From contig NC_089722.1 of the NCBI RefSeq assembly GCF_035083965.1, forward strand, positions 22,685,142-22,749,141: a stretch of DNA of 64,000 bases, read 5' to 3'. Below are positions 6,575-62,526 of the stretch, in pieces. How positions within the stretch are numbered: position 1 is the first letter of the stretch; every line of letters begins with the position of its first letter. The stretch comes from Branchiostoma lanceolatum. Its lineage: Eukaryota > Chordata > Leptocardii > Amphioxiformes > Branchiostomatidae. Under the pieces are notes generated by a model, which saw nothing but the letters and a program-made list of their open reading frames with translations, made no database searches and had not been told where the DNA came from. A program made the translations under genes and the position numbers.

Positions 6575-7958
6575 CTAAATCTTACCAGCAAGTTCTTCAA
6601 ACACATTTGAAAACTTTCTGCGATTGTCTAGATCGGGTGTTCTAGTCTGGGGTGTTTTTGTGCTGTTTCTCTTCCCGACGTTTGACAAAGTACGATTTGC
6701 TTTCCCAACAGCCTCTGAAGTGGTTTCTCTGATGAAACCAACCATCCGTAAATCATCTGTGTTCGGATCCTGACTTTCCTCTGCGTACACATCCATTATG
6801 ATGGTCATGAACATGCTCAGTAATATGAACTGCATCATGACCTGGTAGGAAAAGAACATCAAGGGACCGAGGACCCAATGTCCGTCAACGAGAGCGTCAA
6901 AATCAAAACTACCCAACATCATGGTGCACAGGCTCTGTAGGCTGGTCGGTATGTTCTTGTAATCCTGCAGCTTGGTGCCGAACATAAGATTCCCCATCTG
7001 GGTGAAGGCCATGAGAACGATGCCAGCCATAAAGGTGAACTGAAGAATGGGTCTGGAGGACTTTCGGACGGTCATGGTGAGGGCGTAAACGTGTGAGTTG
7101 AACCGCAGGAGCCGAATGAACTTCAACGTACCACAACAGATGAGCAAAGCGAGCAGGTACATGTAAACTTCAAACCAGCTGACCGCGCTTTTGTAGAGAC
7201 TGAAAACGGAGCTTGAAGATGTCCGTTGTTCAGCGGCTTCATCGATGATGGTTTGAGCTTTGAAATAGACGCCAAGGGTTGCTATGCCAACGATAATTAC
7301 AAGATTTTCCATCCAGCTCCAGAAATCTTTCAGGTACTCCATCGGACGGGACAAGAGCCTTTTGACTGAAACGACATTAACGTCAATATTTATGGTCTAT
7401 ATATCAGGATAGTTTGAGAAGATGTCCGTGTTTACAGACATTAGTTGAAGTGTTTTTATCCATACCATTTTAGGCATTGTTACTGTTAGCGATCTCGAGT
7501 CTGAAAAGAGTCCAGCGTGCTGCAAAGTTAATAATTCGTATCAACTTGTCTGTAGCAATGCTAACCTATATGTTTTTCAAAATAGGATATATGACAAATA
7601 CCAGCAATGTTTCTCTTACCTTCTTTGATAGCAAAGAAAAGAATGAAGACTGCCAGCACTGCCCGCAACACCAAGAGCAAGATGGCGTCATGTTGGATCA
7701 GCCTCAAGGTTACCACCTTGGCCCCCCTGTAGGCGGCTCCCAGCTTAGTAAACTCCACCGCTAGAGTCACCGATGAGAACAGGTTCACATGTGGGTTGTA
7801 CAGAATCAGCTCCACGAAGACGGCGCGGGTTCGCTCGTCCAGCCATCTGCGCTGCTGTAAGAACGTTGCCGACCGCAGACCCGATGCGCGAGTCTTTCCC
7901 AACGGAGCGAGGTAACCGCCTGTGTGATATGTGCCGTGTAGTCCGAAATACGGGAAGC
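6575..7958 (-). CDS. PKD1L exons 35-36: polycystin cation channel domain and C-terminus
   Basis: Exon 35 (7620-7958) has YHTGGYLAPL, WLDERTRAVFVELILYNPHVNLF and a helix LLLVLRAVLAVFILFFA. Exon 36 (6575-7365) has FWSWMENLVIIVGIATLGV, a CGTLKFIRLLRFN S4-S5-like segment, FMAGIVLMAFTQMGNLMFG, a pore-like stretch SLQSLCTMMLGSFDFDALVD and QFILLSMFMTIIMDVYAE. This is Pfam PKD_channel content. The tail after the last helix is short (about 60 residues, RNSTKTPQTRTP) and I see no coiled coil. Stop at 6575-6577. Confidence 0.95.
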
Positions 7959-10900: not shown

Positions 10901-13900
10901 TGTTTTAGCATAATTTCAGATAACAGTGTGCGCCTTGATGTGTGTTGTGAAAGTTTGTATTGATTTTTGAATATTGTACCCCGGGCTAACCCTTTGTAAT
11001 ACCCTTCGACTAGCTGGTTTTCTTTACAGCCAAATAAATAGATCTAACTGTACCTTGGTGAATAACGCAAACAGCACCGCCACCAGAACCAGCTTGACAG
11101 GCTGCACTAGAAACAGGTCACTGACGAATGACGTCACAAAGGTGAAAACCCAGGCCTCCGCCTTAGCTCTCCCGAAACTCAGCGTGTACAGAACCGTGAA
11201 GAAGGCCGTCACGAAACTCGCGGACCACACGAGCAGCCATCCTGGGGGTGCACACCATTGGTTGATTAGATATTAGTCCTTTGAACTATGCTGAACTTAA
11301 TTTTATGCGAGCATATTTCAGTTGATATATGTTTCTTGTTTCCTTTTTATAGTTTTTGAAAGTTGACAAAGTGATAAACACAGATCACTGAATTTGTACC
11401 GTTGTAAGAATCATTATATACAACTAGTTGGAATTGGAGTAAATATAAACTTTACAATAAGATTGTTTAAGGCTCCCATGTAAATTATTCCTACATCAGT
11501 TTTCACTAGTGACATACTTTGAATACTGTACCAGCCATATTCCAGAAGATGGTAGTTAATATTTTACAGTCTACAGCTCACCTACAAGACCACCCCACCA
11601 GGGCAAATACGACTTTTGTCCAAGGCCAGTGTTATCTTTATCTACGTCACGCGTCGTAAAACTTTCTTCAATATCAATATCCTGTAGGACTTTGAGCTTG
11701 TGGTCTTTTGGGTTGTCATCGGGGACGGGTCGATCTCGTGGACACCAATATGACGGCGTGTCTGGATTGTTGGAGGTAAAAGCTTGCTTCGTCTTCTTCT
11801 CGTCAGGTCCCCGGTGTAATAATCTCAAAACGCGTCTGCCTGGCTCCGAGTTCAACTTGTTGCCGCTTCTCTTTTTTGGTGTCGGTGATCCAGAATTTCG
11901 GAAGAGAAAGACGATGAGAAGGTTGACTGGTAGGATGATGAGTGCGCTCTGTATGCCGATAATTAGCTGAAAGAGGACAATGTGAGGCATTGAATACTTA
12001 GAAACTTTACAAAAGACATTCATACACCAAAGTCGTGAAACCTAAACCGTGGGCGGTGCCGATTTCCAGACATCTTTCCCCAACCCTTGACGTCACGTTA
12101 CCGGGGAAACTACGCGTTTCAAAGGTCAGCGAGTCGTCCGTAAAAGTGGGGAAGACCGAAGTTATGGTAACAACATTCGCATGATAAGTGCCGCAACTTT
12201 TTATCAAGTTTTAGTTGGTATCTACATCTGCCTGATAATGATTCGTGGTTGTGCTTTCAAAATGTCGCGCCTACCGCTACTTATACAATTTCTATGATAT
12301 AGATTCTTGATTGCAAATTCTAACGTTTAATCAAACGCCATATTCTTTATGATGTTAATGGTTTGAAGCTGTGAACAATCTAGGGTTAAATGAAGCATAA
12401 ACATCTAAGTTGAAATCTGCATTCTTTCTCGTCACCTGTGGAAGTGAAATCGGAGGTTTGATCTTCACACCAGCTATCCTGAGCGGTTCGGGAGGATCGA
12501 AGTCGTCCCCGCGGCCGAAGAACATGATGTTGGTGATCATGGTGCTGTAGAGCAGCGCCAGGCAGCAGGACAGGCGCTGGACACGGGTGAAGGGGCTCCG
12601 GGCTGGACGTCCTTTCACGGAGAACCAAATGTGGCCATCATTCATGTCCCTGTATGGTGAAAACGATGAATATATGACTAAATTGGGAAGAATAGAATTT
12701 AATATGATCCGTTGAAGGACCATAAACTCCTTGCTTGCGATTTAGTTTGAGACATTGGCTTGCAGTTATATGTACAGTCCACAGAGCCCCAGTCCATACT
12801 GTTTTCTTAGACACCCGATCCTGACATGCTTTGTCGATAAGAGTCGTTAAGCAGTAGTGTTGCTTAGCTGACAGAGTCGACTAAGCGGACTGGACTCGTG
12901 GCCCAGACCAGGTGCTTAGCGAGTTTCTCGTCGACAAGTCAAAGCAGACCAGGCCCAGACAGTGGCTATAGCGCCGCGAAGCCTCACGGGAACGGTATCG
13001 AGAGCCAAGATGGCGGCCCCCCTGAGCCGCAGTGATCCTACTACAGTGATCCAGTCCTAGACCTCGACAATTCGAAAACCTGTGAAATTGGTTACTCGAT
13101 GGACATCCTGATTGTTGAATTGCAGTTCCTTTCACCTCATGAGTGACAATTTAGAGCACTCACATAGTCCCTACCGGGCTAACCACGCCAGCTATTGGAA
13201 GAATTTAGTAGAGTTTCATCGGAGGGATTCGCAGGCAAATGTGATCTTCACCGTGGACTGACTCTACTGGCTTATTATTCCTTTTTCTGCCGAATTCTAC
13301 GACCCAAACGCCCGTAGGAGGGTGAAGGCTAGCACTTACCCCAGGAAAACGACTACGTTAACGTTGTAAAGTCTGCAGGTAACGTCAGTTGTGTATACTA
13401 TTGACGTTGTTGAGATAAATCAAATTATTATTGATGATTCTACTGTCAATACTGTCTTGATCACAGGAAGCGATTAAAATGTGGTTCATTGTCACCGAAC
13501 GATTTTTTGTTGTTTTTAAGTGTATTTGAAGTATGCTACAAAAGGAAATGCCTGAGTTTTTGTTGTGTGTACATGTTAGCTAAGCTATGGGACTGGTGTG
13601 CTGAAGTACCGTTACTGTCTGTAACGTGTTATATATGCGATTTTTCACCGTTTACCCTTCTTACAGTTACAGTCAAGCTGGGACAGTTATTACTACCCTC
13701 CTGTGCAGGCCTCCTATAACGCGCGACATATATACTGTATTGCGCGGTTGTTACGACTCCCACCGTTGAGTCTTTCCGCGCCAGGCTGGAGGCCTGCCCG
13801 CCTTAGCCCGGGACCTCCTCCCCCCCTACCTTGCCCCTTGCGGGGTTATCTGGGGGCCCAATAAGTTGAAGTATTGGGGGGGGGGGGGCTATTATGCCGG

Positions 13901-16900
13901 CAAGGGAGTTGTGCAGCCGAGGGAGTTGTATAGCCGAGGGGTCCGCGCGTTATGGACCCCTCGGCTATACAACATGACATGTTTACCCTGCACAACTCCC
14001 TTGCCGGCATAATAGCCCGCCCCCCCCCCCCAATACAGTATATATGTCGCGCGTTATAGGAGGCCTGCACAGGAGGCTAAGTTATTACCCCCATTCAGAT
14101 ACTACCACCAGGTGACATTAATCTTAGACCACTTTGTAAAACTTGTGTAACCACCCAGGCCTTTAGGAATGCACACTGCAAGGCAATTTTTGTACCCATT
14201 TTTTGCCCTATAAAATTCTTCTGTCATATCCATTTGCACCAAATTGACCATGATGCAATTACTAACATGCTGAGCTACATTCTCATGTATTTCTCATGGT
14301 CTCGAGTTAACAGAAAAAGCTGGTCTATGTACCTGGCCTATCTGTTTACCCTGAATTCTCTACCCTTTTTGGGCCTTATAGCTTTAGGGCATGCATGGGG
14401 GTTTGGTATCTAATGGAATTTTGTTGAGGAAAAACTGGGTCAATGTCATAATCCCAGCTGTGGGTGTGCTGGATCCTACTGTTGGGGGATAGGGGCAGCT
14501 ATGAGCAACTCCACCAACACTGGAAGAAAACCTTGGTTATATATACAAATTCTAAGAATACAATAGAATATACAAAATAATAAATATTAGGATTGTTAGA
14601 CTAGATTGAAGGAGTGGGGTATAAGAGTTAACAAATAAAACTGGTAGGATGGGCCAGAGGCAATGATAGGGCCTTTACTTGCAGAACAGCAGCCCCTAAA
14701 GATACATGATAAAACTAAGCTTTAAGTTTAAAGTTAAAGAAGCGAGCACCATACATCCGCATGGATATATTGAAACTTCTTTGATTATCCTCTGCTAGTT
14801 GGTTAGTATCCACTACAGAAACTCCAGGAGTGTCAGACATTATCTGTTGTGAATCTAGCTGTTGTTACAAACAAAGCTCGGTTCTAGGGGTGGATACCGG
14901 TTTGGCTTAATAAGGTCCAAGTCCAAGTTTAGGTCCAGAGATTTAGGTTCAGGTCCGGACCTGAACTTGGACCTGATCCTGTCCAGTTGATGTTTTGTTT
15001 TATTAGACCAATATGAAGCTTAGAGAATTAATACTGACACGCACAACTATAATTGAAAGTTTCTTGGTGAGAAGACTTTCAACAGAAACCAGTGTTTGTT
15101 GCACTTGTTTTAAATGCCTTTTTTTCAGAGGGGAGACTCAAAACACTTTTTAACAAAATAGAAAAATATATTTGTACTTTGTTAAGTTTTTTTACTCAGG
15201 TTTTTGGCTTTCAGGTTTTTTGGACTCGGTTGTTGGATGTTATAAAGGTCCGAATCAGGTCCAGCAAACTGGTATCCACCCCTTCTCGGTTCTATATATC
15301 ATTGTCTGGCTCATCCAACCAGTTTTCTTTGTTTACTTGTAACGTTCCGCATTGATTTAGTTAAGTGTTTGTAATACATTTTACTGTACACTAGTACATG
15401 TACAGGAAATAGTTTCCCAATCTTGGTGAAATGGCTTGTAGCTACAACAGCCTCCCATCCCCAACAACAGGTGTACATGTTGTCTTCCATTCAGTCCATC
15501 CAAATCTGGAATTGCATTGACCCAGTTTTTCCTCAAGGAAATATCATTAAGGCCAAACCGCCATGCATGCCCTTAGACAGGCCAGGTAAACCGTTTTTGT
15601 AAACCGTCTTACAACCATCCATCAAGCATTTACAGATAAATCAGAATACTACAGTACTGCACTTAGTGTGCAGATCATGTCTAAGACAGACATCACATAT
15701 TCATGGGACTAGAAATAAAGTAGAATACTGTATCACGTTCAGTACGAAGGGCTTAGATGGGCAAAACTTTTTGTGGTGGTTTAAGTTCACCGTATGCGTG
15801 AAAACCGCAAACAAAAAACTACCGCACACATTTCTGCATTTACAGTAATTATCAGGTTTCCTGTGACAGCTGACATGCCAAATTTCAGACAAATCCATCT
15901 GAAGGATCCTTATTTATCGGTGCGAAGGCACAGACCCTAATGTAAAGAAGTTTAAGTATGAAAGTCTTATCTTAACTTTAACAAAGAAGGCTATTGTAGC
16001 ATTTTGGCATAAAGTATGGAAATAGATAAAACTTGAATGATTTAAATGTTATTGAAGTTCCAAATGCCGTTGAATGCCGAATGAAATTACCCTCTTACCA
16101 CTCCAGAATTATAGTATTTTCTCATCAACTATGCAAATTAGAACCATTTGCATAACTGATATTCCTCTCTTTCTCAATTACATATGTCACATGTCGAAAG
16201 TCCTATCATGAAATACAATGGATTTATATACTGTCCTCCTAATTCGCTTGCCTTGTATTCAATTGTCAATCATTATTCCAGCTTGGGTTATTTGGGCTTT
16301 ACTCTTTCAAAGTCTTAAACAAACTTGACCCCTGCTTCAGTATACACAAGCACACAAACGGCACTTAAAACACAACCTTCTTGGCACAGGTAATAACAAT
16401 CTCTTTAAAACCTGTTGTCATTTATATACATGTAGTTGAATGTTTATCATACTGGTAACTCTATATACATGTATAGCTAGACTGTAATCAAGTGTTAAGT
16501 ATAGCAAGCCGGACCCGGCATCTGCTTGGAGATGAATAGATTGTAGGGTGTCAGCTGCACACAGGGACCCAGCTAACATCTGCCGCCTAGTATGACATCT
16601 GCTTGGAGAGCGCTGGTCAGGCTAGCAGCACAAATGCTTATAATAACAGCTGTTGACTGTTCCATAGCTTCAAGATGGGGGTGTCTCTTTTTGATAATAA
16701 AAAGTTTAATAAGTTAATTGCAAGTTCTTGCCCATAGGCTAATTGCAAGCTTGTTCGTTTGAACATGTAACATGAAAGGAGGGACAAACAATATATAACA
16801 ATACAGCATGTGACTTTTCTAGTCTAAATAATAACTCTAAATTCTATCTTATTTGTGTTTGACTTGTTTTTCCAAGACAGTGGAAGACGAATGATCCCAC

Positions 16901-19900
16901 TTTTACTAAAATGTGTGGGTTTTTTTATGTTAAGAGGAGAGTAGTTTTCTTTTTGTCTGTTAACATGGAGAAATTTGGATGGAATTTGGTGGCCTCTTGA
17001 AACAGCGCCTTTCTTTCTTGATCGTAGAAGGGGAAACTTGAAATAAAATGTGTTTCGTCTTCCACCGTGCTTGACATGCAGTATTTACAAATTCTTTCGC
17101 ACACAGGTAGCTTTTTTTACCGCCCCCACTCTATTTCGAGGGGGTGGGCACTAATTCTAATTTTGCTAATTGCTGAGCATAAATCAAAATCCTCTAGTAC
17201 TAGGGTGGAAAATAGATAACATGCCTCATCTCACGCATACCAGCAGATGGCATGCCAAACTACATATGACTACTAATGCATCAAAGGGAAAGCTGTGAAT
17301 GTACGGACAACCCTTTACCACAATACTCCTTCAAGAGGTGACCCTCCTTGGAGGTCACTAGAAGACCAACCTTTATATTTCACTCATCATCCGTACATCT
17401 TGCCAAAAATATATTGATGGTATCTGCTACTACACACAAGTTCAAATCATAGCAGGGCACAGGAACCCAAAATGGTGTGTCCTGACCCACCTCCTTGAAT
17501 AAAGTGGACTGATATGCCACTATCCTAGTGATGCTGTTGCCTCTGCATAGAGGTACCAGTTGCATGTCATTCAGGCTCTATACGAGGGCACAGGAGACAA
17601 AAAAAAATCAAGACCATAGCGCGTCTAGGTCAAAAGATCCAGTAAATGGAAGTTCTGCTGCTGTACCAAGGTCACATATCAAGGGGTCGTGTGGTGCAAC
17701 AGCAGAGCGTTCGACTCAGAACCAAGAGGTCCCGAGTTCGAATCCTGTCATGTCACTGATCTTGTGCCCTTGGGAAAGGCACTTTTCACGACTTTGGTAT
17801 TCATTGATATATAGTCTATTGAAAAATAACACCAATTTCCCAAGTTTAGAGCTTCTTTAGATCTTTCCAGTGACGGTAACTTAAGCCTACTGCTTTTATA
17901 TGCCACATAAAAGGTATCAAAGGTGGACAGATTTAATTTAAATCAAAGGCTAACACTTGAAAAAGCACACACTCATAATGTCACATAAAACAGTTTATTT
18001 TCATCATAGCCCAATGTCATGGTACAGTGTGATCGATCCTATTGGATAAGAACTTCAAGAAGCATGGTGTTACATTGGTGAACCAATTTTGTTTGTTGCT
18101 TGTCTGATTTTTCAGAAATATAATTGGAGTGACAGAATTGAAAAAGAATTTTGGCAAAAAGTCTGAAGTAAAGACACAGGCTTATATAACAAAGAAGAAC
18201 AAGCAAGTTTTCAGCAAATGTGTGTCAATCATTCCTTTAATTTGATCTAGTACTACAATATTTCAGTGTTAACTGAGGACTTTGTCAATATCATTCTTGT
18301 CCCATTTCTTAAGTAAACAGAAGAAAAAATACAGTATAAGTATTTGTGAAGTGACAGAAAAATTACATTAGAGTGTTGTAGATCCAATACAACTAAACAT
18401 GCTTGTTATGATGGGGCCTGTTTTAAATCATTGTTGTGAAAAAATCTTGCTTGCCCGATAGGGCAAGTTGGGGAGGACATCCACAGCACTATCACTTGCC
18501 CCGGGCAATTATACTTGTCCAGCCCTGTGGGCACCATTAGGCTTGATGCCCTTTTCCAGGCTATTTACTGTAGCCCGTCCAAGGTCTTCCACGAGTCGTT
18601 TACGTGTCTCCCACGTGCTCCTGTCAAATCCGGACCACTTAACGAGGAATTCTACCCCTTTGTAGCGTAACTTCCTCTTCTCAAGGAAGCATTCGACATT
18701 GTAGATCTCGTCTTCGCTTTCCATGGAAAGATCCTCCAGGCGCTCTGAAGCTGTAGATAGACACAAAGAAAACAACTGCAATAAGATAGGTGTTTGTTAC
18801 AGTATGTCATAATATATATGTTGTGTAGCCATTGCGGCAGATCATAGCAGTATAAACTGTAATAAGTGTGAAGATTAGTTTTTAAGTTCACTTCTTAATT
18901 AAGACAAATTTCATCCTAAAAAAACTTGTCTACACCACTTAAAAACAAATGTAATAACAAAAGATAGTGACACAATGTTCCACCTATAACTTCCTGTCTT
19001 CAAGGTGACAATATCTTCATTATTTATTTTCCACTTTATATAACAAAGATAGAACATACAGGGTGATATCAACTATTCACCTGTCGGTGTTCTTTTTGCT
19101 TTTGAAGAAATAGCCTCCTCGGCGGGGGCAGGGGCTACAACTGAAGGGGCGCCAGTCATCTGGGATGGGAGAGGGGGTTGTTCGTCCTGGGTGGTGACAT
19201 CCATGTCGGTTTCAGCAGGAGGGGTAGAGACTGTATGTGACGGGCCATCACCGGCAGTCTCCTTTGACAAAACTGGAAGCAAAGATTAACAGGAGCATTC
19301 TTTTGACATCTCATTGACTTTAATTCACAAACCAAGCCAACAGTATCAAATGCCACATCACTAAAAAACATGAGCCCCAGGCAATTTTTTTTTACTTTTA
19401 ATGTCTTTCTTTTCAAAGTTTGGAACTTGAAACAGGACCCTGCCCCGATCATATTGCTGCAGAATTACAAATATTGAAAGAAGGCGTAACGTCACATAGT
19501 GTAATTACAGATCTGGAGACATATTTAGCAAGCTCCCACTCACCTTTGACCAGTATTTTGTCCTTACAAGCAAGGAGCTGCTTAAGTTGGTCCATTTTCA
19601 ACTTGCCAGGCTTCTTCAGTATGAAGCCCTCTGGAAGTCCTTCTACTTTGACGAGCCCTTTTTCATAGTCGCCATATCTGAACCTGGTTCCTTTTCCTGA
19701 TGACATCTCTGTAAATACACATGTCAAGATGATAAACTTCAAACAAATCCTTTGCTTATTGATTCGTTTTATATCGTTCCTCTATAGCAGATTTTATTCT
19801 CTGGACCACACAAGTAAACCTATTTATACTGATCACTCATCCTTATTCTGCACACAAATGGGAGTACACAGAACAACGTCTATACACCTATAGGCATTAA

Positions 19901-22900
19901 AACATAAAAACAATTGAAACAAATATCCAACATAGTCCTTCAAATGGGACATTAAGCTGGAGGTCCCGTGTTTGAGGATTGCTAATTAGGTTAAAAGACT
20001 TTACCACACTTGTCAAAAAGTGTAGGGGTCTGCCCCGGTGTGGTTAACCAAATTTATGGGGACACTTTGGCATATCTCTCCCTTGAAAGCGATATCAGGC
20101 ACAATACACAGGACTCATAGGACTTGACTTACCACTTAGTTCCAACACTTTGTGAAAGTAAATTGGAGGAGTGCACCTAAATTTTTGCTGTATTTAATCA
20201 CATATGCAAGAAAGGTTTTGTACAGGAATACTGACCCTCAAATTAAATCAATGTGCACATGTAGGTAATCCATAGTCTTCAACCTGTAACCAGTGCCAAA
20301 GGGCTAGTAATTGGACTTTGAGTATGGGCAGAAGTAAGGAATACAGGTACTGTACTTACGCCACTTTTGGTTTAGAAGCTCGATGGCCTTCTCCACCAAC
20401 ATCTTTTGGTCCATTTGGTTGCCATCTGAAATTGACAGCACAGATTTTCACTCAAAAAGACATGTACTTTTTTAAGTATAACAACTTACTGTATTACCCT
20501 TAGATCTGTACTAGAGGAACATTAGTCTGTATAATACAAACTCCTGCTGCCCGTGGGTGGTTTTATGGCCCCTCCCTATGGGCTGACCCATGTGGGTGCT
20601 GGATGGCTGCTACAGGCGTGATTAAATCAGGCTAGATGAGCCTCAGAAAACACTTATTTATTTCACTTGGAAGGAGCTCTTACAGAATGTGTACACTATA
20701 TACTAAGTAATGTTATGTATTCAGAGTGGCACTTGCAATGAAACTTTGTTTGTCAACACAAGTCTGATAACAAATCTAAGATGATTTAGCGTAACTCATC
20801 TATTCCTTCATCATACTTACTCTTACTCTTTGACACAGAGCTTGAAAAGTTCCATTCCAGGTCTTCATTTTCTTGAAGGAAAGCCCTGCCAGCTGGAGTC
20901 CCGCTCTGGTAGCTTTTTTTCGATTGGTGGTGGTAACCAAGAAGCAACAAATCACAGCCAGCTTCATTGAGTGATGTCATCTGTGCAGAAAGAAAATGAT
21001 ACTTTGAAAAAAAACACATCAAAATTTTTACCTGTTGGACAATACATAAATGATTTTACTAAAAGTAACTTGGATTTCAAGAGAGACATGTACAACTGAA
21101 CAGGGCAGCATTCACAGTTTACCCTTCAATATTTACTTGATTAAACCTTACCTTGTTAAAATGCTTATAGTCCTTTTAGTTACATTACTCACAACTTGCA
21201 CATTTACAAATGAAGGCTTTGTTTTCAGTGAATAACAATGGACACTGCTACAGTATGTTATCCTAGTATGAGAGATGTTAAAGAAACTCAACTGTGCCAC
21301 GCATCTGCTTGTATAAAGCAGTGACCCCCCTTTGTCTCTCTTCATCAGAAGGAGGGTCACGGGGCTCCAACTCCTCAATCTTAGCCTTTCTGTTGAAGTC
21401 ACTTTTCTCGTCGCTGCTCAGATTTGTCCAGGCGCTTCCCGCATCTCCTGTGACAAACTGACCTGTTTTCCCTTTGGGAAAAATGCATCTACTGTTATGG
21501 AGAAGAATATCTTTACCTACATAATAGTTCATATTTACACTATAATTTGCAACATACAAATCAACCTTTCTTTCAAACCCTATAGAATGTGTTTTTCCTA
21601 GCTGCACCACTCAACATTTGATCTTGTCTAAAATAATCCCATTATCTGACTGGTGTAGCATAATCAGATATTACTCAAACCTGATGATTATTGCCAAGTG
21701 TACTTCAAAGTTGTCAGACTCAAAACAAACTCTTACATTTGCACTTTTATCACACAGAACGATGCCACAAATATTGCTAGAAATGGAAGTAACATCTTGC
21801 TTCCAAGACCTATTGATAATAATACATTTTTTTCTTTTAATACAATTTTTTTAATATCCAACAACCACAGCAAAGTCTTCATTATTAATAACATGTCATA
21901 CAGGACCACATCCAAGTAACTCTGTCGCTGTATCTTGCTACATAATCCTTGTGCCTTGCCCCATTCAGAACAAAGGATAACTTTGTGAGGGAAAGTGAAG
22001 AAAAAAAGAAATTTATGCACTAGTTTAGTGTTGATCTGACATGAGAAGGGCTGACCCTGATCCAACGTTTCAATGTGCCAGTCCACGTGTGAATAAAGTA
22101 AACTAAAGTTAGGTACCTTTGAAGAAATCCCTTCTGAAGACGTCGTATCCACTTGTTGCCTTCTTTTTGGGCAAGAAAGCATTCCTCCTCCTATATGGTT
22201 GCGCAGGCTTCGATGACCTCACAGCTTTCTGCCTCCTGTTCCTAATCCAACGCTGCACAAAACAGAACTATATTGTTTTAATTCCCTTCAAGGAACTACA
22301 TGTTGTATATTGTTTCTCTTTGATTTGTCTTATCTTCTTCCTTTGTCTCCATCAGAATTCTACAAATGGATTCATCTTGGTCATTTTGGTATGAAACCAG
22401 TATCTCAGCACACAAAACATGTATCAATAGACTTGTTTTTGGAAGCTCATGCTTTAAGAATTTAGACTTTGCTCCTATCAAATGTTTAGTAACTTACAGT
22501 AGTTATCAGGTTGTTACAAATTCTATTAAATATCCATACATTTTGAGATTGATACGTAAATATTGTTTCATTACTTTTTCCATACAAACCATGTTCAACT
22601 TCAAGTCAGACTTTTTTCTATCATGTGACGTTACCTCAATAATTCCCTCCCCTAGGTTGGTCTTCGAGACAGCTTCTTCTATCAACACCTTGGCCGGTGG
22701 GTCCGTCTTATTTGTCATCCCTCTCCTCCATAAGTCCTCCAGTATTGCCTTGAACGGGGTCAAGTCTGTCCTCACACTGTAAAAATAAGTACAGTAAAAA
22801 GAAATGTAAACTTACCATGATTATTTTGTAATAAAGTCAAGGCCACACCATTTTCATTTTGAATTTGATTTTGAATAAAGGCATCTAGGCCATTTTGCTT

Positions 22901-31900: not shown

Positions 31901-34900
31901 CGCCAACACTCAGACAACAATGACAACAACATAAAAAGAAGACAACAACTTTAACTTCTATGATATTATGCGCACATAACTTGGTGCGAAACGTTTAACG
32001 AGTTAACGACCAGGACCACTACACATGTGCTTTGACTTCTATGATACAGCAGTAGCTAGAACTGCTATGGTGCTAGAACAGCTAAGGTGCAACTATGCGT
32101 GCAGAACTTTGTGGTATCCAATTACTTGGGATCTATTGCGCTTGCGCGCGATGATCCCATTACAATTGAAGAAAACATTTACTAATACAACAATTGCTAA
32201 CACTATAGTAATATGCCTTTGCTACATCACTATACCACACTTACAACATGTGTAATTTTGGCAGCAGTCATATGGATTAATTTTGTTTAAAAGAAAAAAA
32301 AGCAATATATAATAAGCTTCAGTCACTGCGCATTTATTTTTGTGCATCACTTACTCTTTGTACTGAGCCATCAATGCTGAGCGAAGAATTCCATCAGTGC
32401 ACGACTGCATCTCGTCCCTGTCAAACAAGACAAATAAACATTATCATACTACATGTAATATACGTAATTTACCCTGACCTGTTAGACTAAGTAAAATCTG
32501 AGCAATTTACCCTTCTAATACAATTGTAGCAAGCAAAAATGTCGTTAAGAAACAATCAGTAACAACAACAGTATGTTCAACAACATCTGGACACATTGCC
32601 CAACCAGGTTCATCTGTTACCTAATGGAGAAGAAGACAGACAGGTCCAGTGCGTACGTCTTCTTCCATTGACTCAAACTTGCTGAAATGACAGAATGAAA
32701 CAACTTTTGTCAGTTTGACCAATAGTGTAACATACTTATTCTGTTTTTCTTTACTACAAACAACCAATCACAACAAATACATAATACAATACTCACATCT
32801 CTGTCTTCCTCGCTTCCACTGTTTGATGAGGTCTATCTCATTCTTCCTCCAGGTCTCGACATCATCTTCAGACACTGCAACTATTGAATTATCATATAGT
32901 ATTACCTCAGTTAAGTAAATGCTTTCACATCAATGTTGCTTTGATAACTATGTCCTTTCATCATTATTGATTTGCACACAATAACAACCTCTGAAAAATT
33001 ATTTCTTTGGTTTCCTGAGTATTTGTTTTTCGTGCCTTGGAGAGAGTAGCAGGGATAGCTATAAAAATCTGAAAGCATAAATGATGTCAACTGGAATTTC
33101 TTCCTATTCTAAGGCTCATGTTAGCTGACCATATTCAAACCCTTTAAAATACATTTTTTTGGATATATAAAAGACAAAATAACAAGTTTGCTTCTTTTAA
33201 TTCCAAGGCATAAGGCAGAGGGTGAGGTAAGCAATTGAAAGACTGGGAACACATGAACATCTTACCTGGTGCCTGTTCCATGATGTTTTTGAGCTCGTCC
33301 GAGGCCAACTTGTAGGTCTTCTCAGCCTTGTCATAGTTCTGAACAAGGCTGACATCTGAAGTGCAAGCAGCATGACAATTTTTTATGTCTTAACAAGATG
33401 TTCATAGATGTTTGTTTGTGCTCAAGGTAAGTAGTAAGCTACTAGGATCTAAGGAAATTTAGCTAAATACATCATAAGGGAAGAGCAAGGACAAAATGTG
33501 TTCATCTAACACATAAGCCTCCTGCTGGTAATGTTAAGATTGAACGATAAATTTTATGCAGTGTGAGAGTAGGCATTGTGAACTGGAGGTTACTTTCTAT
33601 GTATAACAAATTCCAATAAAAACTTACGCATATCTGCAACCTTCCTCCTGCCATAATGCAGTAATGCATCGGTCAGAAGGTCAGTCCGGTGGGTTGGTGT
33701 CATCTCCTTGGTGATGGAATTAAAGCCTCGAAGATACGACCACAGTCTCTCGACACATTCCCCGTCCGTCAGCCCAAATCCCTCCTTCCTTCGAGGACTG
33801 TACAGTATCTGCCATTGAAATTGTAAAAGACAGGCATTAACTAACTGTTCTTTTACATGTTGGTGATGAGTCTAGGTAATAAGCACTATATTGTGTCTGT
33901 TTTGACAATACAGCTCAGAAGAAAGTCTGCAATTAATATGCACCCACTGATGAAAAATTTGAGAAGCAACTAGCAATCTCTCGATAAAATATTACTTGAT
34001 GGCAAGTATAACTTAAGGCAGTGAGAGGGGACACTGATTTAGGTATAAATCATGTCAATGTCCAAGTTCCATAAAATTTGTTATGCCCACAAACAAATGA
34101 TCAATAAATTTACCAGTACCTGACAGGAAGACTTGTGGCCGTAACAGTGGAAGATTGGAATAGCCAATTCAATTGCCTCCAGCAGGTCCCACCTTTCTGC
34201 ATGCTAAATCAGGCAAGTCAAAATAATATGCATAATGTTTTACACTACATTACAAACAATACAAATTCACATCTACACTATAATTCTCCAACAAAGCTGA
34301 AGACCACCAGGCTATGAAGTGATGAGATATTTCCATCTTAATATCCCAATCTTGATCCTTAGACCACAGTGGTTCAGTCTCTGACTGACTTGTTCTCACA
34401 TACTTCAACATGGAAATGAAACAAGAGAACAAATTGAAAACAGAGTGTTGGGAGAAATCTTATATCTGAGTATATACTTTCCACCTGTTGGGGATATTCT
34501 GTATGTAGAGTGTCATTTTCTTTTGTTTCAATATTATCTTCTTTGATTCTGAGTTTTTCAGAAAGCTCAAAATCCAAGAAAAATAACAGTTTTTGATGAT
34601 CTAACCATAAACATATGTGGTCATACTTTGAAAAAAAATCTTTACCAAAATCAAGATTTTTGCTAGGATATTTAACATATCAAGAAAAAAACTCATTCAG
34701 TTTAATCAGATGACTTTGTTTTATGTATGTAGAGTGTGCAACTTTAAAGAAACTTACTTCTAAATGGGCCGTTAAAACGCAGGCAATATCATACATGACA
34801 TGCAACTTCAGATTCCTCCCTGGCTGAACGGCAGAAAGAAGCTCTTCTATCAGGTGGACTGGATATCCAAGCCTACATAAACAGAATCAGGAGTTATACG

Positions 34901-37900
34901 ATTTCACAAATTCCTAAAATATTTCAAGCCTCTGGAATCTGTGGGTTTGTTTTCCAAATTGTAAAATGGATATTTGTGGAAAACTGTCCAACAGCGCTAG
35001 CTGATGTCATGTTAACCAATAGATACATTGAAACCTAGGTTTACTCAAGGTTTACTTTAATGGTCCCACAAATAAAAATATAGATCCATTTTCTTATTGC
35101 TATGCGCATGATGACTGCAATACCCAAGTCTCATGATCATGAATGGTCAGTCAGCTTTAGTATATCACACATGTAAAGTTTCCATCATTAAACATGATGT
35201 ATTTATGCTGAGTATGTACTGATCAAGCGTGTAAGGCCCAAACCTGCACAACTTGTTCTTTACCCTGAAAGCTGCTATTGGGCCCCAAATCTAATAAGCA
35301 TTTCTTTGATAGGTCAAGACCTAAACACATCAATTTCACACAAAAAAAATTGGCACAAAAACTTTGGAAACTTTACTTTGGTTGGTCATATTTCCAATGT
35401 TTCTTTATCCATTTCAATGTATTATATATCAATGGAAAGGTACGTTGTGTAATTTCCTTTCCTATGATACCCAGCTCATTATAATTGTAATCTAATGGAA
35501 CGAGCAACAGGCCTTCCTACAATGTAGGTGAGTAGGTTTTAAAAAAAAAATTCCCTGCTGGCATAGTGCCAAACACTCAGCTCAGCACCAAACCTGTTTG
35601 CAGTGGTGTTGTCCACATCGTGACTGGAACAGTGTGTGTGTATACATTATGTTCATAGCTACAAGAGAGTAGATTTATTCTTCAACTGCTGGTTGGGGGA
35701 ATCAAAGAGTAGAGGCAGCTGAGAACCCTATGTTGACTGTTGCACGAGCCTGATTGCACAGACAGTGTTTGTTGGAGGTAGCGTCATGTTGTGGGGCAGT
35801 ATAACTGTCTGAGGAAAAACCAGGCTGATCATCCCAGACCTCAAGTCTGTTTAGGTGTCAAGACGTAGGAACACTATTCTCCATCCAGTCTTAGATCCTT
35901 ACCCCTGCAATTTCAGTGCCATTCTGCAAGATGACAGTGCCCATCCACACAGCCAATGAGGGTCATTTCAGACCACCTCCAGGATGCAGGAATACAGAGA
36001 ATATAATGACCTTCGAACAGCCCTGACCTCAATATGATTGACCACCTCTCAGGCTCTGGCTCTGTGATCATCTTGGGTGAGCTGTGCATGCAAGAGTGAC
36101 CAACAGAACAACACTGGTCGACCTTCGTCGGCTCCTTTTGGAAGAATGGCCAAGGAACTGTTTACAAAACTGGTGATAAGCATGAGGAGGATGTGCCGGG
36201 CTGTGGTGACAGCGCATGGCTTGTGTACTCACTACTGTAATTGCATTTAAGTTCGCGTGGTTTTAATTTCGCGGTAGGGAGAAAATGGAGTATTCGCGGT
36301 GGTTTTAAGTTCGCATTTGAGATAATAGTAGACAAGGGGGTAGGAGGGCAAAAAATTTTCCCGGTGGTTTTAAGTTTGCGGCGAAGAGCTTACCGGGAAA
36401 ATCGTGAACATTAAACCATCGCGAACATTTCTGCTTTTACAGTATTAGGCCACCTTCATCACAACTGTGGTTCCTACAAGCAATTTTTTCTATGAATGGA
36501 GAGTAAGCTTGGCATTCATATCAACATGTTTGGTTGATTGAAGTTTCATATTACCCTGGCACAAGACACTACCAACAGAAGAAAAAATACAGAATTGAGC
36601 GTTTGACTTTATTAGACCTGGTGCTCAATCCATCAATTTACAATCATAATAAGTTAGGTATCCTAGGAAAGAAAATCACAAAAGCTTTCCAATGATATAT
36701 TATACATTGAAATTGATAAAGAAATAACGGAAATATGATCCACCAAAGTTAAGTTTCCAAACTTTTTGTGCAAAGTTTAAAAGCCCTTAATAATGCACAT
36801 TTAGGTAATCAACAGTTATTCACTTTGGTCCTATCAATTTCCACATTGGTAGATAATTTAAGAGGAAAAGGAAAAGTTTGTATGCAAACCACATTCATGT
36901 TCTGTCATCTTTTTGATATGTACCAGTGACTGTATATACAGTTCCAATGAGTTGCTTGGATCACAATTCTACTATGTCCAGCTCAAAGATATCAAATTAT
37001 TCAAGAATCAAACAGAAATGAAGTTCAAACCTTTCTCCATGATGCATGTCAAGGAATTTGACCGGCATGCTGTGACGACATACAGCCCCGAACACACCTG
37101 TCACATCAAGCTTCTCTTGCCTGGACCGAGATCGCACAGAACTTCCAGCTTGGAAGTTGTTGCAGTCCTGAATAAAGGACAGCATAAACACAATTTATAT
37201 GAGTCATACTGTAATACAAAACATGAAGGGATCATCCTAGCTATTCAGTCATCGCAAGGAAATGTTCAGCTATTGGTCCTTCATAGTGTTTGAGTAGAGC
37301 AAGAGCTCTAGTTCATTAAAGGGCAATATTGCTGGCGATGATCACTACAATGACAGAAGAACAAGAGTAGCAGTATACTCTGAAGTGAGAATGTACCAAA
37401 TTAATGTGTAATGGACTAATAATGCTGTCTTTAATGTGGTCACCTGAGTAATGGCAATGTGTTTGGCCAGTTATTGTGAAATGTTCCCCTGTTTTGAGGT
37501 TTCGAGTTATGCAATACAAAATAACATGGTAGTTAAAAAATGTGACTGCATTTCAAAGTACTAAACTGGGTTACCTCATCAGGCTTGCTGTCTTGAGAGT
37601 AGTCAGACATAAACTTGGTCACTTGATCATCAGGCAAGAAGTAAGTGCTTTGATGAAGAGGGCCTGCCGAACTTGTACCTGATGATTTTTTCCTCACAAG
37701 CCCAAAGTTAGCATCTAGGGAAACTATCATCTCTCCATCACCCTACAGTGAAAATATAAATTCCAGAAAAGGTGATAAGTGTACCTTACTTGACTTATAA
37801 GTATAACAATGGATGAGAAAGAAGTGAATTGCAGTATTGCACCTACATATGATCTAGAACTGAATTTTCATTCTTGAGCAAACCTTAGATGCTAGGTCAC

Positions 37901-40900
37901 TTCGAGATACTATTGGGGGCATATGTGTATCTGTGCTGGTACAATGTGGCATTCAATACAGATGTATTACCTGCACCACACAAATTTTACCCCTACCTGA
38001 ACCATTACTCATTTTCAGAAATTGTTTGATTAGAAAGAGAAAGACGCTTACAAAAAATTGAATTATTTATGTAACATTTGACAGGAGGTAATGATCAGTT
38101 CAGTGAAAGGTATCAACAAAAGTACAAGATAGGTGCAGGTAGACATCATAAATCCCCATAGAAATATTTCCAAGACCGGTACATTAGAAGTAAAAAAGAA
38201 AGTCTTGCCATGTTTGTCTATTCTACCTTCAAAGCAAAAAAACAGAACTGAAGCAGGTCATTTGATGGTCATTTGACCCCCAAAATGGAAGCATTTCATA
38301 TAAATGGCAAGAAGAGAAGGGGAATTGGTAGTAAAAAGCAATACATTTCTCGTATACATATAACACAAAGACTTCAGTGAAATACATTTCAAAGATGATG
38401 GATTTCAATCCATATAGACAAGGTATTACAAGAATGTTACAAGCAGCAAACATTTAAAGCAAAATTTTTGAAATGTCAGTGAGTGAAATAGATAAGTGTC
38501 ATACCTTTGAGCATGCAGGACAAACAGTTCCATCACCAAGGTGTGAACATAGATGAAGCAGCGTTCTCCTCTTGTACAAATGGTGGTGGAACTCAGCTAC
38601 CGACTGGCCGATCAATGCCCTGTAGAGGATATCAACCTGAATGCAAGACAAAGGACAGTAAAAAAAAAATACATAAGCTTGTAACAGTAAAATACAAGAG
38701 TACAGAACACCCACTTGCTTAGAGTAACTACATATAAGTTTAGTTGGTGGCAACCTATTTTCACAGCTACATGTAGGTGAGTTTACAAGCTACACTTTAG
38801 AAAAAGCTGGCGTTTTGACCAGGTAAGAATAGAAAAAGACACTCTTCGGGAGTGGTCTCGGCTGCGGCATACATTTTGGCAAGTTTAATTTGGTTCACTT
38901 AGAGCAAATTGCAAAATTCATTGTATTGTGATGTGATGTTGTTCCCGCTTTCTTGGCGACTACATATTCATAACAAATGTAAGGAAAAAAAAGCACCATA
39001 TGCAAGCATGAATGTGCTGCAGGTCTCTGCAGATTTTGCGGCAGGTTTGTAACATTCATCACAACTTCCATTACAACATCCATGGTCCATCTACCTAATT
39101 TTCCTTCTCGTTTCAACAATTGTTTCAGGGCAGGTGCTGAAACCCACAATTATCTTACCTCATATTTGCAAAGACCACTCATCCACCTGACGGCATTGCA
39201 GAAGCCTTTGACAGACACTTGGCACTCTAGTGTTAGCGCTGTCAACCACTCGAGCAATTCTGTGGAGAATGCTGTTTGGGGCCGATCTGCAGTGGCTGCC
39301 CAAAGACCAAAGCGTAGCAGGGTGCATGCATCAGCTTCATGCTCGCAGACAAATATCCGCCAATAACAGACACGACCTGAAAACAGATCATATTCTCATG
39401 CTGTAAATCTAGTTTTCTTCTACAAAGTGAAATAAATCCTGCACTCACAGTCAAAAGTTAGGTGTGCAGCTCCAATTTTGGGTGCACAAAGGTGCACATG
39501 AACTCAGTATTTCAAGCCAAGATTGCATAAGGTTATGTAGCAAATAGCTCCAAATGATGTGGGTATCTATCGTGCTGGTATGAAATTTGCCCTGTTGTCA
39601 TGGCATATTGCACCCATGATAAGTAAGAAGATTAAAGTTAAGAAGTAGTCACCTGCACTGTTGAAAACTTTGAAGATCTTTAACGTTCTGCTGGGACAGT
39701 CCTGGTGGTCATGTCTTTCAAGAATAGTGCTCTCAAGGTTGCCCAGTCGAAATGGTTCGTAATGATCCTCCTGTGAAAATGAAGATTACTGTGTTAGATA
39801 TATGATATTGGTGTAAAGTTTGAAATAGCCTTCTCTACATGGATAGAATCCCATGAAAATTGAGCCAACATTCTTCTGTCGGACATTGCATATAATAGTA
39901 TATGTTGGATACTGTTACCATCAGTTATGGGAGATAAGGTCAATAAGTTAGCAGATCAAAATAATAAAATAAATCATGGCTCGAAATACTTCAACGTATA
40001 TACCCAACGTTTGGAACAAATGCATGTGAAGTGTTTGTTTCTTGGTTCACACAAAATGTAGGTAGGCATCATAAATACATGTACCTACACAAAACAATGA
40101 CTTAACCTGCACTAACCTGTATTGGTAGATAGTATTTTAAAAAAATTATAAGCTACTGGAAGTGAAGAAATGATATGTGCAACAGCAAGATGAAAACAGG
40201 TACCTCATCATTCAGCTACTACATGTACAATGTCTTTAGAGGTCAGTATGTGATTTTACATATTTTGACACATCTGAATCAAGTTGACTGCTTAAAAAAG
40301 GAAACCCATTTAAGTAATAACTGGCAACATGTTATTAGAAGTTTTAGGCCCACTTTACACCAAGCTTTTCGTGACAGCAGCTATACAAATGTAGTTCCTG
40401 CTGTCAAGACACCGCTGTCGCAATGTCTTTAGACGTATCGCTCGAAAATCTGTCAGGACACCCACGGTGACCTTTGACATAATGCGCAGAATCAAAACGT
40501 TTCAGATGTTTTTCTTTCGCCCAGCTAGAATCCACCCTGCTTTACTTCTCTGCTGCCATTGCTATGGCACAGGGTAGCAACAATAACCACCAGGGGATAT
40601 GGCGTTATGTAAGGGTACTGGCGACCTTTTGGTAGAAATTTGCCAGGGTGACTGTGTGAGTCCTACAAGCAGTTCAGAATGACTAGAGGCACATTTCAAT
40701 TAGCCTGCGCTATATGCTGATCACCTAAACCCTGACCTCCCCCTGTCGCGAGCCTGGCGAGTTCTCTTCAAACACACTTTGAACTTGTCGGGGATCCCGC
40801 TGAGTTGTCGGGCAACCAATATAGAGTTGTCAGAAGAAAATTTGAAGTCAGCGGGATAACCACAGTGGGAATTCTCTGTCGTGAAAAACTCAATATAAAG

Positions 40901-43900
40901 TGGGCCTAAGTAACAGTACATACATGCCATTGTTCTGGGTAGTGAGCTGGTGACAGGTGGTGCTGTACTATTACACAACAATCTGTGCAATATGTTATGG
41001 TAGGCCCACAGTCATTGCACTTAATGGGACAGCAGTCTTCCACCCCACAAAAGCTACAAATGTAGCAAGGGGCTTCCAGTTTGGTCGCAGTTTCCAAGAG
41101 CTGATCCCTGATTGCTGCCCACTTGGCCAGCTCCTTTTCTTTGGATGCTTGGTATCTGGAGGGGCCTGGTGGATCATCACTAGCAGATGTGCAGGGGGGG
41201 TCTGGATTCAGAGGATAATCTGGAGGAGGTAAAGGCGCAGATGTTCCTGGTGTCCCTGCTAGGTTGTCGCTAGCAGTGTTGTTTCCAGGGCCTGGCATCT
41301 CAATGTACCCATCAACATAAGACCCATCAAGGTGCTGTATTCTGCGCCGGATTCTGGGTCTCTTTTGCCTGCTACAGAATATACCCCCAGACTCTTTTCT
41401 CTTCGCCATGATGTCTGTCAAATAAAAAGTTCCAAGAATTAATGCATAACATCAAAAGATGACGTGTCGTGTCCGCGTGGTGTAGAGGTCTGCGCACTCT
41501 GCCTCTCACCACATCTGGTTCAAATTCATTGGAGCCAGCGGCCCGAGTTCGCGCCCGGGCCTGGACATGACTGGAAAAGATGCGCATCGTCCTATCGGAG
41601 GGGGACGTAAAGACAGCGGCCCCGTGTATGAGGGAGCTTTAGGGCGTCAAACCTCTGCATGTAAAAGAACCCAACACACTTATCGAGAAGAGTAGGGGTG
41701 ACCCGGTGTGCTTGGCCAAAAACGTGAGCCGTGGTGAAGCCGCATTTCACTACCACTAGCTACTTGAAAAAGCATTATGCTTCACCTCAATTGAGGATGC
41801 ATGCTTAACCCCCTTCAAGTGTAAGACTCTGCTAATTAAGAGTCAGAGGCACTGATTTGGAAATACAGAAAAGTCATAATCAAACAGCAAGCAGTAATTG
41901 AATAAAGGTGATGCTAGAATGTTTAAATTACATGCAGGCATGCACTAAACATATTTACTATTCTACTACCGTTTTAATTTTATTTTGATGTTACAGATTT
42001 ACTAACAGCAACAAGGAGCAACAAGCTTAATTACAGGATGCTGTAAATCCTAGCCATGGCGACTACAGAAGGGCGTTTTTGCTTATTGTTATATATAACG
42101 ATGGTTAACGTAGCCCTTTCAAAAGGGCACAAACGCCGGCCTACTACATGTAGTATGTAAATCCTTAGAATCATTTGAGAACGAGGCCCTACAGACAACT
42201 TTAATAGTTTCACACTGTCCTAGCTTTACTAGAATATCTTTTCCAGACCCATGACCATTTGCGTTAAACCTCATTGCTTTAATCAGATTATGATTATGTT
42301 ATACATTTATAAATACACACTTCGAGGTGAATATTCAAGGTGAATAAAAAATCAGGTGCAGAAATAACGTTACCCCCCCTCCCCCATACAGAGCAAATTC
42401 ATAATTTGCTACCTTGGCTCTTCTGGTCGTGAAACTGAATTGAAGTTACCTCTTGTGATGTATTAAAACAAAGGATATGAAAAATGTCAAAATATTTTCA
42501 AAACATCACATAAAACGTATTTACCTTAGACATTGGGCAGCAAATGTTGCTGGCTTGGTTCGGAATTATTTTCACCACGCCATATCGCGGCGGCGTGCTG
42601 GGCGGCTTGGTGACCCCGTTCCCGTGAGGCTTCGCGGCGCTATAGCCACTGTCTGGGCCTGGTCTGCTTTGACTTGTCGACGAGAAACTCGCTAAGCACC
42701 TGGTCTGGGCCACGAGTCCAGTCCGCTTAGTCGACTCTGTCAGCTAAGCAACACTACTGCTTAACGACTCTTATCGACAAAGCATGTCAGGATCGGGTGT
42801 CTTAGATTACAAGTAGACACCGAAATTACAAGTAATATTTCTAGACACACAACTACTTAAGAAACTTAAAGAAAGCCAGTTACCTTGAACTCTTCGCAAT
42901 GAACAAGTTGCGGAATCTTGTCATATCCTCCTCCACTGATGTAGGAATAGCGCGCTCGATCTTTCCGTCATCTTCGTCAACAGCGAACCACCTACACGAA
43001 GAATAGAATAATGAAAAATAAAATTTAAGTTATCTTTCACGCAGTATTTTGTTACGACCGTTTTGAGCCATATTCTAGAAGGTAGTGTCTATAGCATGTT
43101 TAAAAGGTCCATGCCCAAACATGAGATTGTTCTGAACGTTTTGCAAGTTACGGAAAATATGTACGAAGATCTAATAAAGAGAGGGGAAAATCAGATTGGC
43201 CCAAACTCGTACAGACACATGTACTATATATACTCCGGTTGAGATATCAATGGCCCTACGCTATACTCTAAACCTAAAAATAGTCAGAAAGTAATCAGTT
43301 TTGAAATATGCTCACCGGACAAGCATACTGTACAAGAAAATACATCATTAAAGCTATCGTTAAGATATGTAATGATATCCTCTAACTTGGCAAACCATAC
43401 GGCATTTGATCACGTTGTGTTTTTAATCCACAGTTGAAATTTCATTACAAATTATTACCTGTTACATAGGAAAAAGTCCGGGGCGTTTGTTCCTCTGTTG
43501 ACTACAACAATCTGACTGAGGTACCTGGAACAGGAGATCAACAAATCAGCAGTTAAAGGGCTAAAGCAGTCATAATGGTTTTTCAAGTAGCTAGCTAGTG
43601 GTAGTGCAATGAGGCTTCGCTACGGCTCACGATTGTAAGCCAAGGTCTCCCCCACTCTTCTCAATAAGTGTGTTGGGTTCTTTTACGTGCAGAGGTTTGA
43701 CGCTTGAGGCTTTGAAGCTGCCTCATACATGGGGCCGTCGGCTTTACGTCACCATGCGAAATAGTATAATTTAAGAATAAAACACTTGTGTACAGAGAAC
43801 TTTGTTATCCACTAACGCCATTCATCTATTGCATTTCTGTTGTTACTGTAATCTCACCATGACGGACTAAACCCCGCATTGTTGTGCCACACCCTCATGT

Positions 43901-62464: not shown

Positions 62465-62526
<62 letters not shown>

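What the first reader, a model, noticed from the sequence alone, without database searches (positions are those of the whole stretch)
12812..42799. A 30-kb transposon with perfect 184-bp TIRs and a 7-bp TSD sits in a PKD1L intron
Three independent signals agree. The ends are identical inverted 184-mers. TCTTAGA directly abuts both ends. Removing the element plus one TSD shrinks the host intron from 30,234 to about 239 bp, like its neighbours. The element carries a full KDZ transposase. Most known cut-and-paste elements are far smaller, so a 30-kb two-gene unit with spliced genes would be a notable 'giant' KDZ transposon.
Basis: partly seen in the sequence, partly recalled or inferred. Interest (0 to 1): 0.97.

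Follow-up and report, generated by a model that had tools for sequence, protein, structure and literature searches.

The report
Giant two-gene jumping element in lancelet
A 30,000-letter jumping gene of a known superfamily appears to have landed in an intron of a lancelet channel gene, carrying an apparently intact transposase plus a second gene for a likely chromatin-reading protein, one part of which resembles a vertebrate transcription factor.

Summary
In this Branchiostoma lanceolatum window, 12812-42799 is a 29,988-bp unit with 184/184-identical inverted ends and a 7-bp direct repeat, TCTTAGA, abutting both. It sits in a PKD1-like intron of 30,234 bp; without it the intron is 239 bp and the flanking exons encode a continuous polycystin segment. 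Two spliced genes, on the host's strand, are open: a 16-exon, 899-aa KDZ/CxC2 transposase with conserved DDE residues, and a 9-exon, 446-aa protein with homeodomain-like, HMG-like, GTF2I-repeat and HP1-type chromodomain parts. The second gene seems to belong to the unit: another B. lanceolatum KDZ gene, 39-42% identical and in another clade, has an annotated isoform that runs into a homologue of the whole accessory protein (E 2e-24). Best reading: a giant, probably autonomous, fairly recent KDZ cut-and-paste transposon. Its size is not new (30-32 kb KDZ elements are reported in algae); the animal host, long perfect ends with a 7-bp duplication, and the GTF2I-chromodomain accessory protein look new. 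I could not test for other end-to-end copies or an empty allele, because no lancelet genome is held. Class: new variant of a known kind.

The parts
12805..12811 (.). left target-site duplication TCTTAGA
12812..12995 (+). left terminal inverted repeat, 184 bp, begins CACCC
42616..42799 (-). right terminal inverted repeat, identical to the left one over 184 of 184 bases, ends GGGTG
42800..42806 (.). right target-site duplication TCTTAGA
30175..41409 (-). KDZ transposase gene, 16 exons, 899 aa, CxC2/CxC1 zinc cluster then KDZ domain; all 15 introns GT-AG; no internal stop
   Evidence: Pfam KDZ 2.4e-47 on the 895-aa draft
18509..23913 (-). accessory gene, 9 exons, 446 aa: homeodomain-like, HMG-like, GTF2I repeat, chromodomain; all 8 introns GT-AG; no internal stop
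12650..42883 (-). host PKD1-like intron that holds the element (30,234 bp; 239 bp without element and one TSD)
42884..42991 (-). host exon upstream of the intron (its upstream edge is from a rough model)
12436..12649 (-). host exon downstream of the intron (its downstream edge is from a rough model)
13694..14079 (.). 386-bp foldback nested in the element, with its own 9-bp duplication AGTTATTAC at 13685-13693 and 14080-14088
25330..26507 (.). tandem array inside the element, 146-bp unit, about 8 copies, 97% matches

Best explanation
A giant, probably autonomous cut-and-paste DNA transposon of the KDZ superfamily, 29,988 bp, inserted fairly recently into a PKD1-like intron of a lancelet. Shown here: the boundaries, the identical ends, the 7-bp duplication, the two open spliced genes and the continuous host reading frame without it. 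Inferred: the KDZ protein, an RNase H-like DDE enzyme, binds the 184-bp ends, cuts them out and joins them to a target with a 7-bp stagger. Inferred with less certainty: the accessory protein is a partner, not cargo; its homeodomain-like, HMG-like and GTF2I parts bind DNA (element ends or target), and its chromodomain, which keeps the aromatic residues of HP1 proteins, reads methylated histone H3, so that it steers the transposase to, or lets it work in, a given chromatin state.
Against: A single copy was seen at DNA level; no second TIR-bounded copy and no empty allele could be examined. That this KDZ enzyme acts on these ends is inferred. P0068, one residue different from this accessory protein, lies on a 14-kb contig of another assembly and may be an allele of this locus, not a further copy. 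P0030 is an automatic gene model; it shows adjacency, not TIRs. Foldseek alone gave no PDB match at E 0.001 or better for the transposase. The accessory protein's own Pfam matches are below the curated cut-offs (P0068), and the homeodomain-like match is weak by E-value (2da4, E 0.56). The TIR contains no clearly significant repeated short motif (18 of 200 shuffles were as good).
Confidence: 0.87

Rival explanations
1. The ends belong to another transposon type (for example a Mutator-like element with long TIRs) that captured, or was hit by, a KDZ gene and its neighbour; the KDZ enzyme does not move this unit.
For: Long TIRs are the mark of most Mutator-like elements (abstract of PMC3310237 in the listing); the KDZ coding region starts about 1.2 kb inside the right TIR and the accessory gene lies far from both ends, so nothing ties the ends to the KDZ enzyme directly. 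The six frames of the element were not scanned against family libraries (searches failed), so a decayed transposase could have been missed.
Against: The TSD is 7 bp, whereas maize Mu makes 9 bp (abstract of PMC2774946 in the listing); Kyakuja KDZ elements make 7-bp TSDs with CA..TG ends, as here; Cryptococcus KDZ elements have 139-241-bp TIRs; my rough exon predictor showed no third convincing gene inside.
Confidence: 0.07
2. The unit is an old, immobile remnant whose two genes have been kept as host genes; identical ends are due to gene conversion.
For: Interior CpG is depleted (observed/expected 0.35-0.69, flanks 0.67 and 0.84) while the ends are not (0.97); both genes are open.
Against: A host would have no reason to keep 184-bp ends and the TSD exact; relatives of the accessory gene at another B. 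lanceolatum locus (P0069, P0071) argue for dispersal.
Confidence: 0.04
3. The unit is a KDZ transposon, but the accessory gene is captured cargo with no part in transposition.
For: Algal giant transposons, KDZ among them, carry assorted accessory genes mostly of unknown function; only Branchiostoma homologues were found (4 of 4 hits, among the 8000 candidates scored).
Against: The same four-part protein accompanies a KDZ gene of another clade, and its parts are of DNA- or chromatin-binding kinds.
Confidence: 0.3

Closest known systems
Giant KDZ transposons of brown and green algae (Ectocarpus KDZ families, up to 30.3 kb; a 31.7-kb active KDZ element in Chlamydomonas reinhardtii)
   Same: KDZ transposase, about 30 kb; the giant Ectocarpus families often carry extra genes and nested insertions (PMC12477816 passages)
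   Different: Host is an animal; accessory genes are described there as mostly of unknown function, and no GTF2I-chromodomain protein is mentioned in the passages seen
Kyakuja elements of mushrooms
   Same: 7-bp TSD and CA..TG termini (PMC12730594 section 3.2.1)
   Different: The two Laccaria families have no TIRs and carry a TET/JBP dioxygenase; this one has 184-bp TIRs, and no such enzyme showed in the gene models scanned
Zisupton (fish)
   Same: KDZ superfamily, many-exon transposase, inverted repeats; sequences reported from cephalochordates (recalled from the 2012 abstract)
   Different: Zisupton makes 8-bp TSDs; about 11 kb, single gene, with a Ulp1 SUMO protease domain in one isoform (recalled); here 7 bp, 30 kb, two genes, no such domain in the KDZ draft model
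Cryptococcus KDZ1-3
   Same: TIRs of 241, 139 and 169 bp and TSDs of 4-8 bp (PMC12810828 passages)
   Different: About 9-11 kb, CxC1 domain, fungus
Vertebrate TFII-I family (GTF2I, GTF2IRD1)
   Same: The accessory protein has one GTF2I repeat (2dzr E 2e-7 with the single homologue P0070; Foldseek 2dn5 probability 1.00, E 2.1e-4)
   Different: One repeat, not several; followed by a chromodomain; encoded by a transposon

Membership tests
KDZ superfamily | KDZ transposase domain (PF18758) | tested here: met
   161.9 bits against cut-off 26.6, E 2.4e-47 (an 895-aa draft model)
KDZ superfamily | CxC cysteine cluster upstream of the transposase domain | tested here: met
   CxC2 32.8 bits against 27; CxC1 29.3 against 26.9
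KDZ superfamily | three conserved acidic residues | tested here: met
   D169 37/37, D289 36/37 with one gap, E344 37/37 (P0001 numbering) in alignment A2, which holds 37 of the 67 hits; that these are the catalytic ones is inferred
KDZ superfamily | RNase H-like catalytic fold | tested here: inconclusive
KDZ superfamily | inverted ends and a TSD of 4-8 bp | tested here: met
   184-bp TIR, 7-bp TSD, one copy; published values
KDZ superfamily | mobile unit: several copies or empty alleles | not testable with these tools
   no lancelet genome held; only protein-level relatives of the accessory gene at another locus
Kyakuja | 7-bp TSD and CA..TG termini | tested here: met
   TCTTAGA; CACCC..GGGTG
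Kyakuja | no TIRs (the two Laccaria families described) | tested here: not met
   184-bp TIRs; so I do not file it as Kyakuja
Zisupton | 8-bp TSD | tested here: not met
   7 bp (published value)
Zisupton | position in a tree with named reference elements | not tested
   the tree holds no named Kyakuja, Dileera or Zisupton consensus
TFII-I family (accessory protein) | GTF2I repeat | tested here: met
   P0070 to 2dzr E 2e-7; Pfam 23.7, 24.3 and 26.2 bits for P0068, P0069 and P0070, under the cut-off of 27, and 31.5 for P0030; Foldseek 2dn5 probability 1.00
TFII-I family (accessory protein) | several GTF2I repeats in tandem (recalled) | tested here: not met
   one matched stretch in each of P0068, P0069, P0070 and P0030
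HP1-type chromodomain | aromatic cage Y, W, F/Y (positions recalled) | tested here: met
   alignment to CBX5 2rvl shows Y, W and F in the same columns as the Y, W and F there; binding itself not tested

The most novel reading that the evidence does not exclude
The GTF2I repeat of the vertebrate TFII-I transcription factors came from the accessory DNA/chromatin-binding protein of giant KDZ transposons of early chordates: the lancelet elements still carry the ancestral four-part partner protein, which guides the transposase, and vertebrates kept one of its parts as a host regulator. In the KDZ tree the two lancelet lineages that carry the partner lie on either side of the fork (87/85, not strongly supported) that joins fish KDZ proteins to one of them, so the pairing could predate the lancelet-fish split of these elements.
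Probability: 0.15. Interest if true: 0.85.

Novelty: new variant of a known kind. Interest (0 to 1): 0.6.

Why it matters
It gives a giant DNA transposon in an animal with exact ends, exact TSD and two open genes, that is, something whose transposase and ends can be tested for movement of large DNA. It shows a likely transposon partner protein built from a homeodomain-like, an HMG-like, a GTF2I and a probable methyl-lysine-reading part, which makes the question of how DNA transposons choose or cope with chromatin testable. And it places a GTF2I repeat in a lancelet mobile element, which bears on where the vertebrate TFII-I family came from.

Tried and rejected
Other copies of the TIR: none in the rest of the window, none in viral contigs (exact 25-mer); a KDZ profile in viral contigs gave 68 pattern stretches, none confirmed. 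Neither is a test of the lancelet genome. Rfam (gathering threshold) and tRNA scans of the window: nothing. A repeated short motif in the TIR (GTCGNNAAG-like, seen by eye): 18 of 200 mononucleotide shuffles had a 7-mer repeated at least as often, so I do not claim transposase sites. The near-palindromic target TCTTAGA rests on one site and is not interpreted. Genes on the + strand of the element: the same predictor gave a score of 8.4 against 118.6 for the minus strand and only short implausible models; it was trained on peptides that I had picked by eye, all of them from the minus strand, so it leans to that strand. Distant relatives of the accessory protein outside Branchiostoma: none in a profile search (4 hits, all Branchiostoma, among 8000 candidates scored); that search is limited by shared words and by length (P0030 is too long to be listed), so absence elsewhere is not shown.

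Literature. GTF2I repeats in lancelets or invertebrates: 171 papers with three of five terms, 15 listed, none of the 15 holding 'GTF2I'; none; one, unrelated by title; one, on behaviour genetics. KDZ or Zisupton in lancelets: 2 papers; 619 papers with three of five terms, 15 listed, none of the 15 holding Zisupton or 'KDZ transpos'. Giant KDZ elements: 10 papers; I looked into 4: PMC12730594, PMC9297572, PMC12810828, PMC8226300; 2 papers; I looked into 1. What I saw: PMC12730594 outline, passages and section 3.2.1; PMC12477816, PMC12810828, PMC9297572, PMC8226300, PMC6431247 and PMC11907188 passages; PMC10145014 outline with abstract; others as listings only. The 2012 Zisupton abstract is recalled; the Chlamydomonas 31.7-kb element is known to me here only through PMC12477816.

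Rows dropped: only the 8000 candidates sharing most words were scored in each protein search. Alignment A2 holds 37 of the 67 hits and the tree 30 of 67, chosen by me for length and spread; 21 of the 67 are Branchiostoma (hybrids included) by the source's name.
Full report
What is there. The window is from the Mediterranean lancelet Branchiostoma lanceolatum, judged by an NCBI protein of that species that maps to it exon by exon (P0001). At 12812-42799 lies a unit of 29,988 bp. Its two ends are inverted copies of each other over 184 of 184 bases and then diverge at once. Directly outside both ends stands TCTTAGA; the match is exactly 7 bp long. By chance, a given 7-mer recurs at a fixed place about once in 4^7 cases.

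Where it sits. The host gene runs on the minus strand and is PKD1-like: a polycystin channel domain at 6575-7396 (PF08016, E 1.3e-37), and the two exons around the unit, joined, align without a gap at the junction to polycystin-1 (PDB 6a70, E 5.2e-13). The intron is 30,234 bp with the unit and 239 bp without it and one TCTTAGA. Both genes of the unit lie on the host's strand.

Gene 2, the accessory protein. Nine exons from 23913 to 18509, 446 aa, all 8 introns GT-AG, no internal stop. P0068, Hypp9644 of B. lanceolatum on a 14-kb contig, differs from it at one residue (A344T); it may be an allele of this locus in another assembly. The protein has a three-helix homeodomain-like part near residues 26-81 (model; Foldseek 2da4 probability 0.96 but E 0.56; Pfam homeodomain E 0.0098 in P0070, below cut-off), an HMG-like part (E 0.014, below cut-off), a GTF2I repeat (Pfam 265-303; Foldseek 2dn5 probability 1.00; P0070 to GTF2IRD1 2dzr E 2e-7) and a chromodomain (Pfam 383-421, below cut-off in P0068 and above it in P0069 and P0030; CDYL 2.7e-6 and HP1-alpha 1.7e-5 for the piece alone). 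The whole model of this protein is of low confidence (pLDDT 54.8 with four sequences); only the parts named are usable. In the alignment to HP1-alpha the three cage positions read Y, W, F in both (that these are the cage is recalled).

Why the two genes belong together. P0021 and P0030 are two B. lanceolatum products, named isoforms X2 and X1, on a contig of the same length, that share their first 625 residues. P0021 goes on as an ordinary KDZ protein; P0030 instead runs into a C-terminal part that matches the accessory protein from residue 20 to 430, parts in the same order (25% identity over 467 columns, E 2e-24). So in a second place a KDZ gene is followed, on the same strand, by the same kind of accessory gene, as here; P0030 is an automatic model and says nothing about TIRs. 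That KDZ protein is only 39-42% identical to this one and sits in another clade. P0070 shows the accessory protein in a B. floridae x B. belcheri genome (49% over 60% of the query). Further B. lanceolatum relatives are P0069 (82% over 61%) and the fragment P0071 (91% over 16%), both on a 19.9-Mb contig.

The tree (30 of the 67 homologues). This transposase groups with B. belcheri P0003 and B. floridae P0002 (100/100). Its sister is a group of 16 other lancelet and fish KDZ proteins with 87/85, short of the tool's own mark; all 19 together have 100/99. P0021 is among the 16, as are the fish. So an ancient pairing with later loss, or two captures, are both open.

Age. No difference in 184 bp means, with simple Poisson counting, less than about 1.6% divergence between the arms at 95% confidence. 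The species is highly heterozygous, to judge by haplotypes that each hold only about 61% of the k-mers (PMC11907188). The insertion may therefore still be polymorphic. Against simple youth: the interior is CpG-depleted (observed/expected 0.35-0.69; flanks 0.67 and 0.84) while the ends are at 0.97, and a 386-bp foldback with its own 9-bp duplication sits inside. This fits an old element lineage with a recent jump; gene conversion of the ends cannot be excluded.

How it most likely works. Inferred, not shown: the transposase binds the 184-bp ends, cuts, and inserts at a 7-bp stagger; the accessory protein helps by binding DNA and methylated histone H3. I put the transposon reading at 0.87 and an active role of the accessory protein in transposition at about 0.6.

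Known or new. KDZ elements of about 30 kb are already known from algae (PMC12477816); long TIRs with 4-8-bp TSDs are known from Cryptococcus (PMC12810828); 7-bp TSDs with CA..TG ends are known from Kyakuja, which lacks TIRs (PMC12730594); KDZ sequences in lancelets were noted before (PMC9297572 mentions B. floridae hits; the 2012 Zisupton abstract, recalled). In ten literature searches no title, opening of an abstract or passage that I saw describes a giant KDZ element in an animal or this accessory protein; the searches cover open-licence papers only and most listed papers were not opened. Hence: new variant of a known kind.

What remains open. A six-frame family scan of the element did not run either.

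Noticed in passing
window 13694-14079: 386-bp foldback with 94% inverted arms and a perfect 9-bp duplication AGTTATTAC, nested in the element.
   Followed up: partly
window 25330-26507: Tandem array, 146-bp unit, about 8 copies at 97%, inside the element between the two genes.
   Followed up: no
window 35346-36778, 14386-15573, 40344-40909: Pairs of inverted arms without clear duplications, possibly decayed nested elements.
   Followed up: no
window 17686-17795 and 42-151; 41595-41779 and 43571-43759; 41628-41743 and 63111-63228; 16837-16985 and 50076-50223: Short dispersed repeats shared between the element and its flanks at 79-93% identity.
   Followed up: no
window 49524-49890 and 53507-53882: Long simple arrays, ATATATC about 52 copies and TAGACC about 63 copies, the second inside an open frame that reads as a Leu-Gly-rich repeat.
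   Followed up: no
window 61912-62556 (- strand): C-type lectin domain, E 4.2e-14, upstream of the polycystin exons on the same strand; whether it is part of the same gene was not tested.
   Followed up: partly
protein P0071 (Hypp6687, another B. lanceolatum locus): Fragment of the accessory gene joined to a stretch that looks by eye like a tyrosine recombinase; Pfam gives no match.
   Followed up: partly
protein P0029 (B. belcheri): Gene model that joins C2H2 zinc fingers to a KDZ transposase; may be an annotation fusion.
   Followed up: no
window 12812-12995 and 42616-42799: The ends are GC-rich (56%) and not CpG-depleted, unlike the rest of the element.
   Followed up: partly
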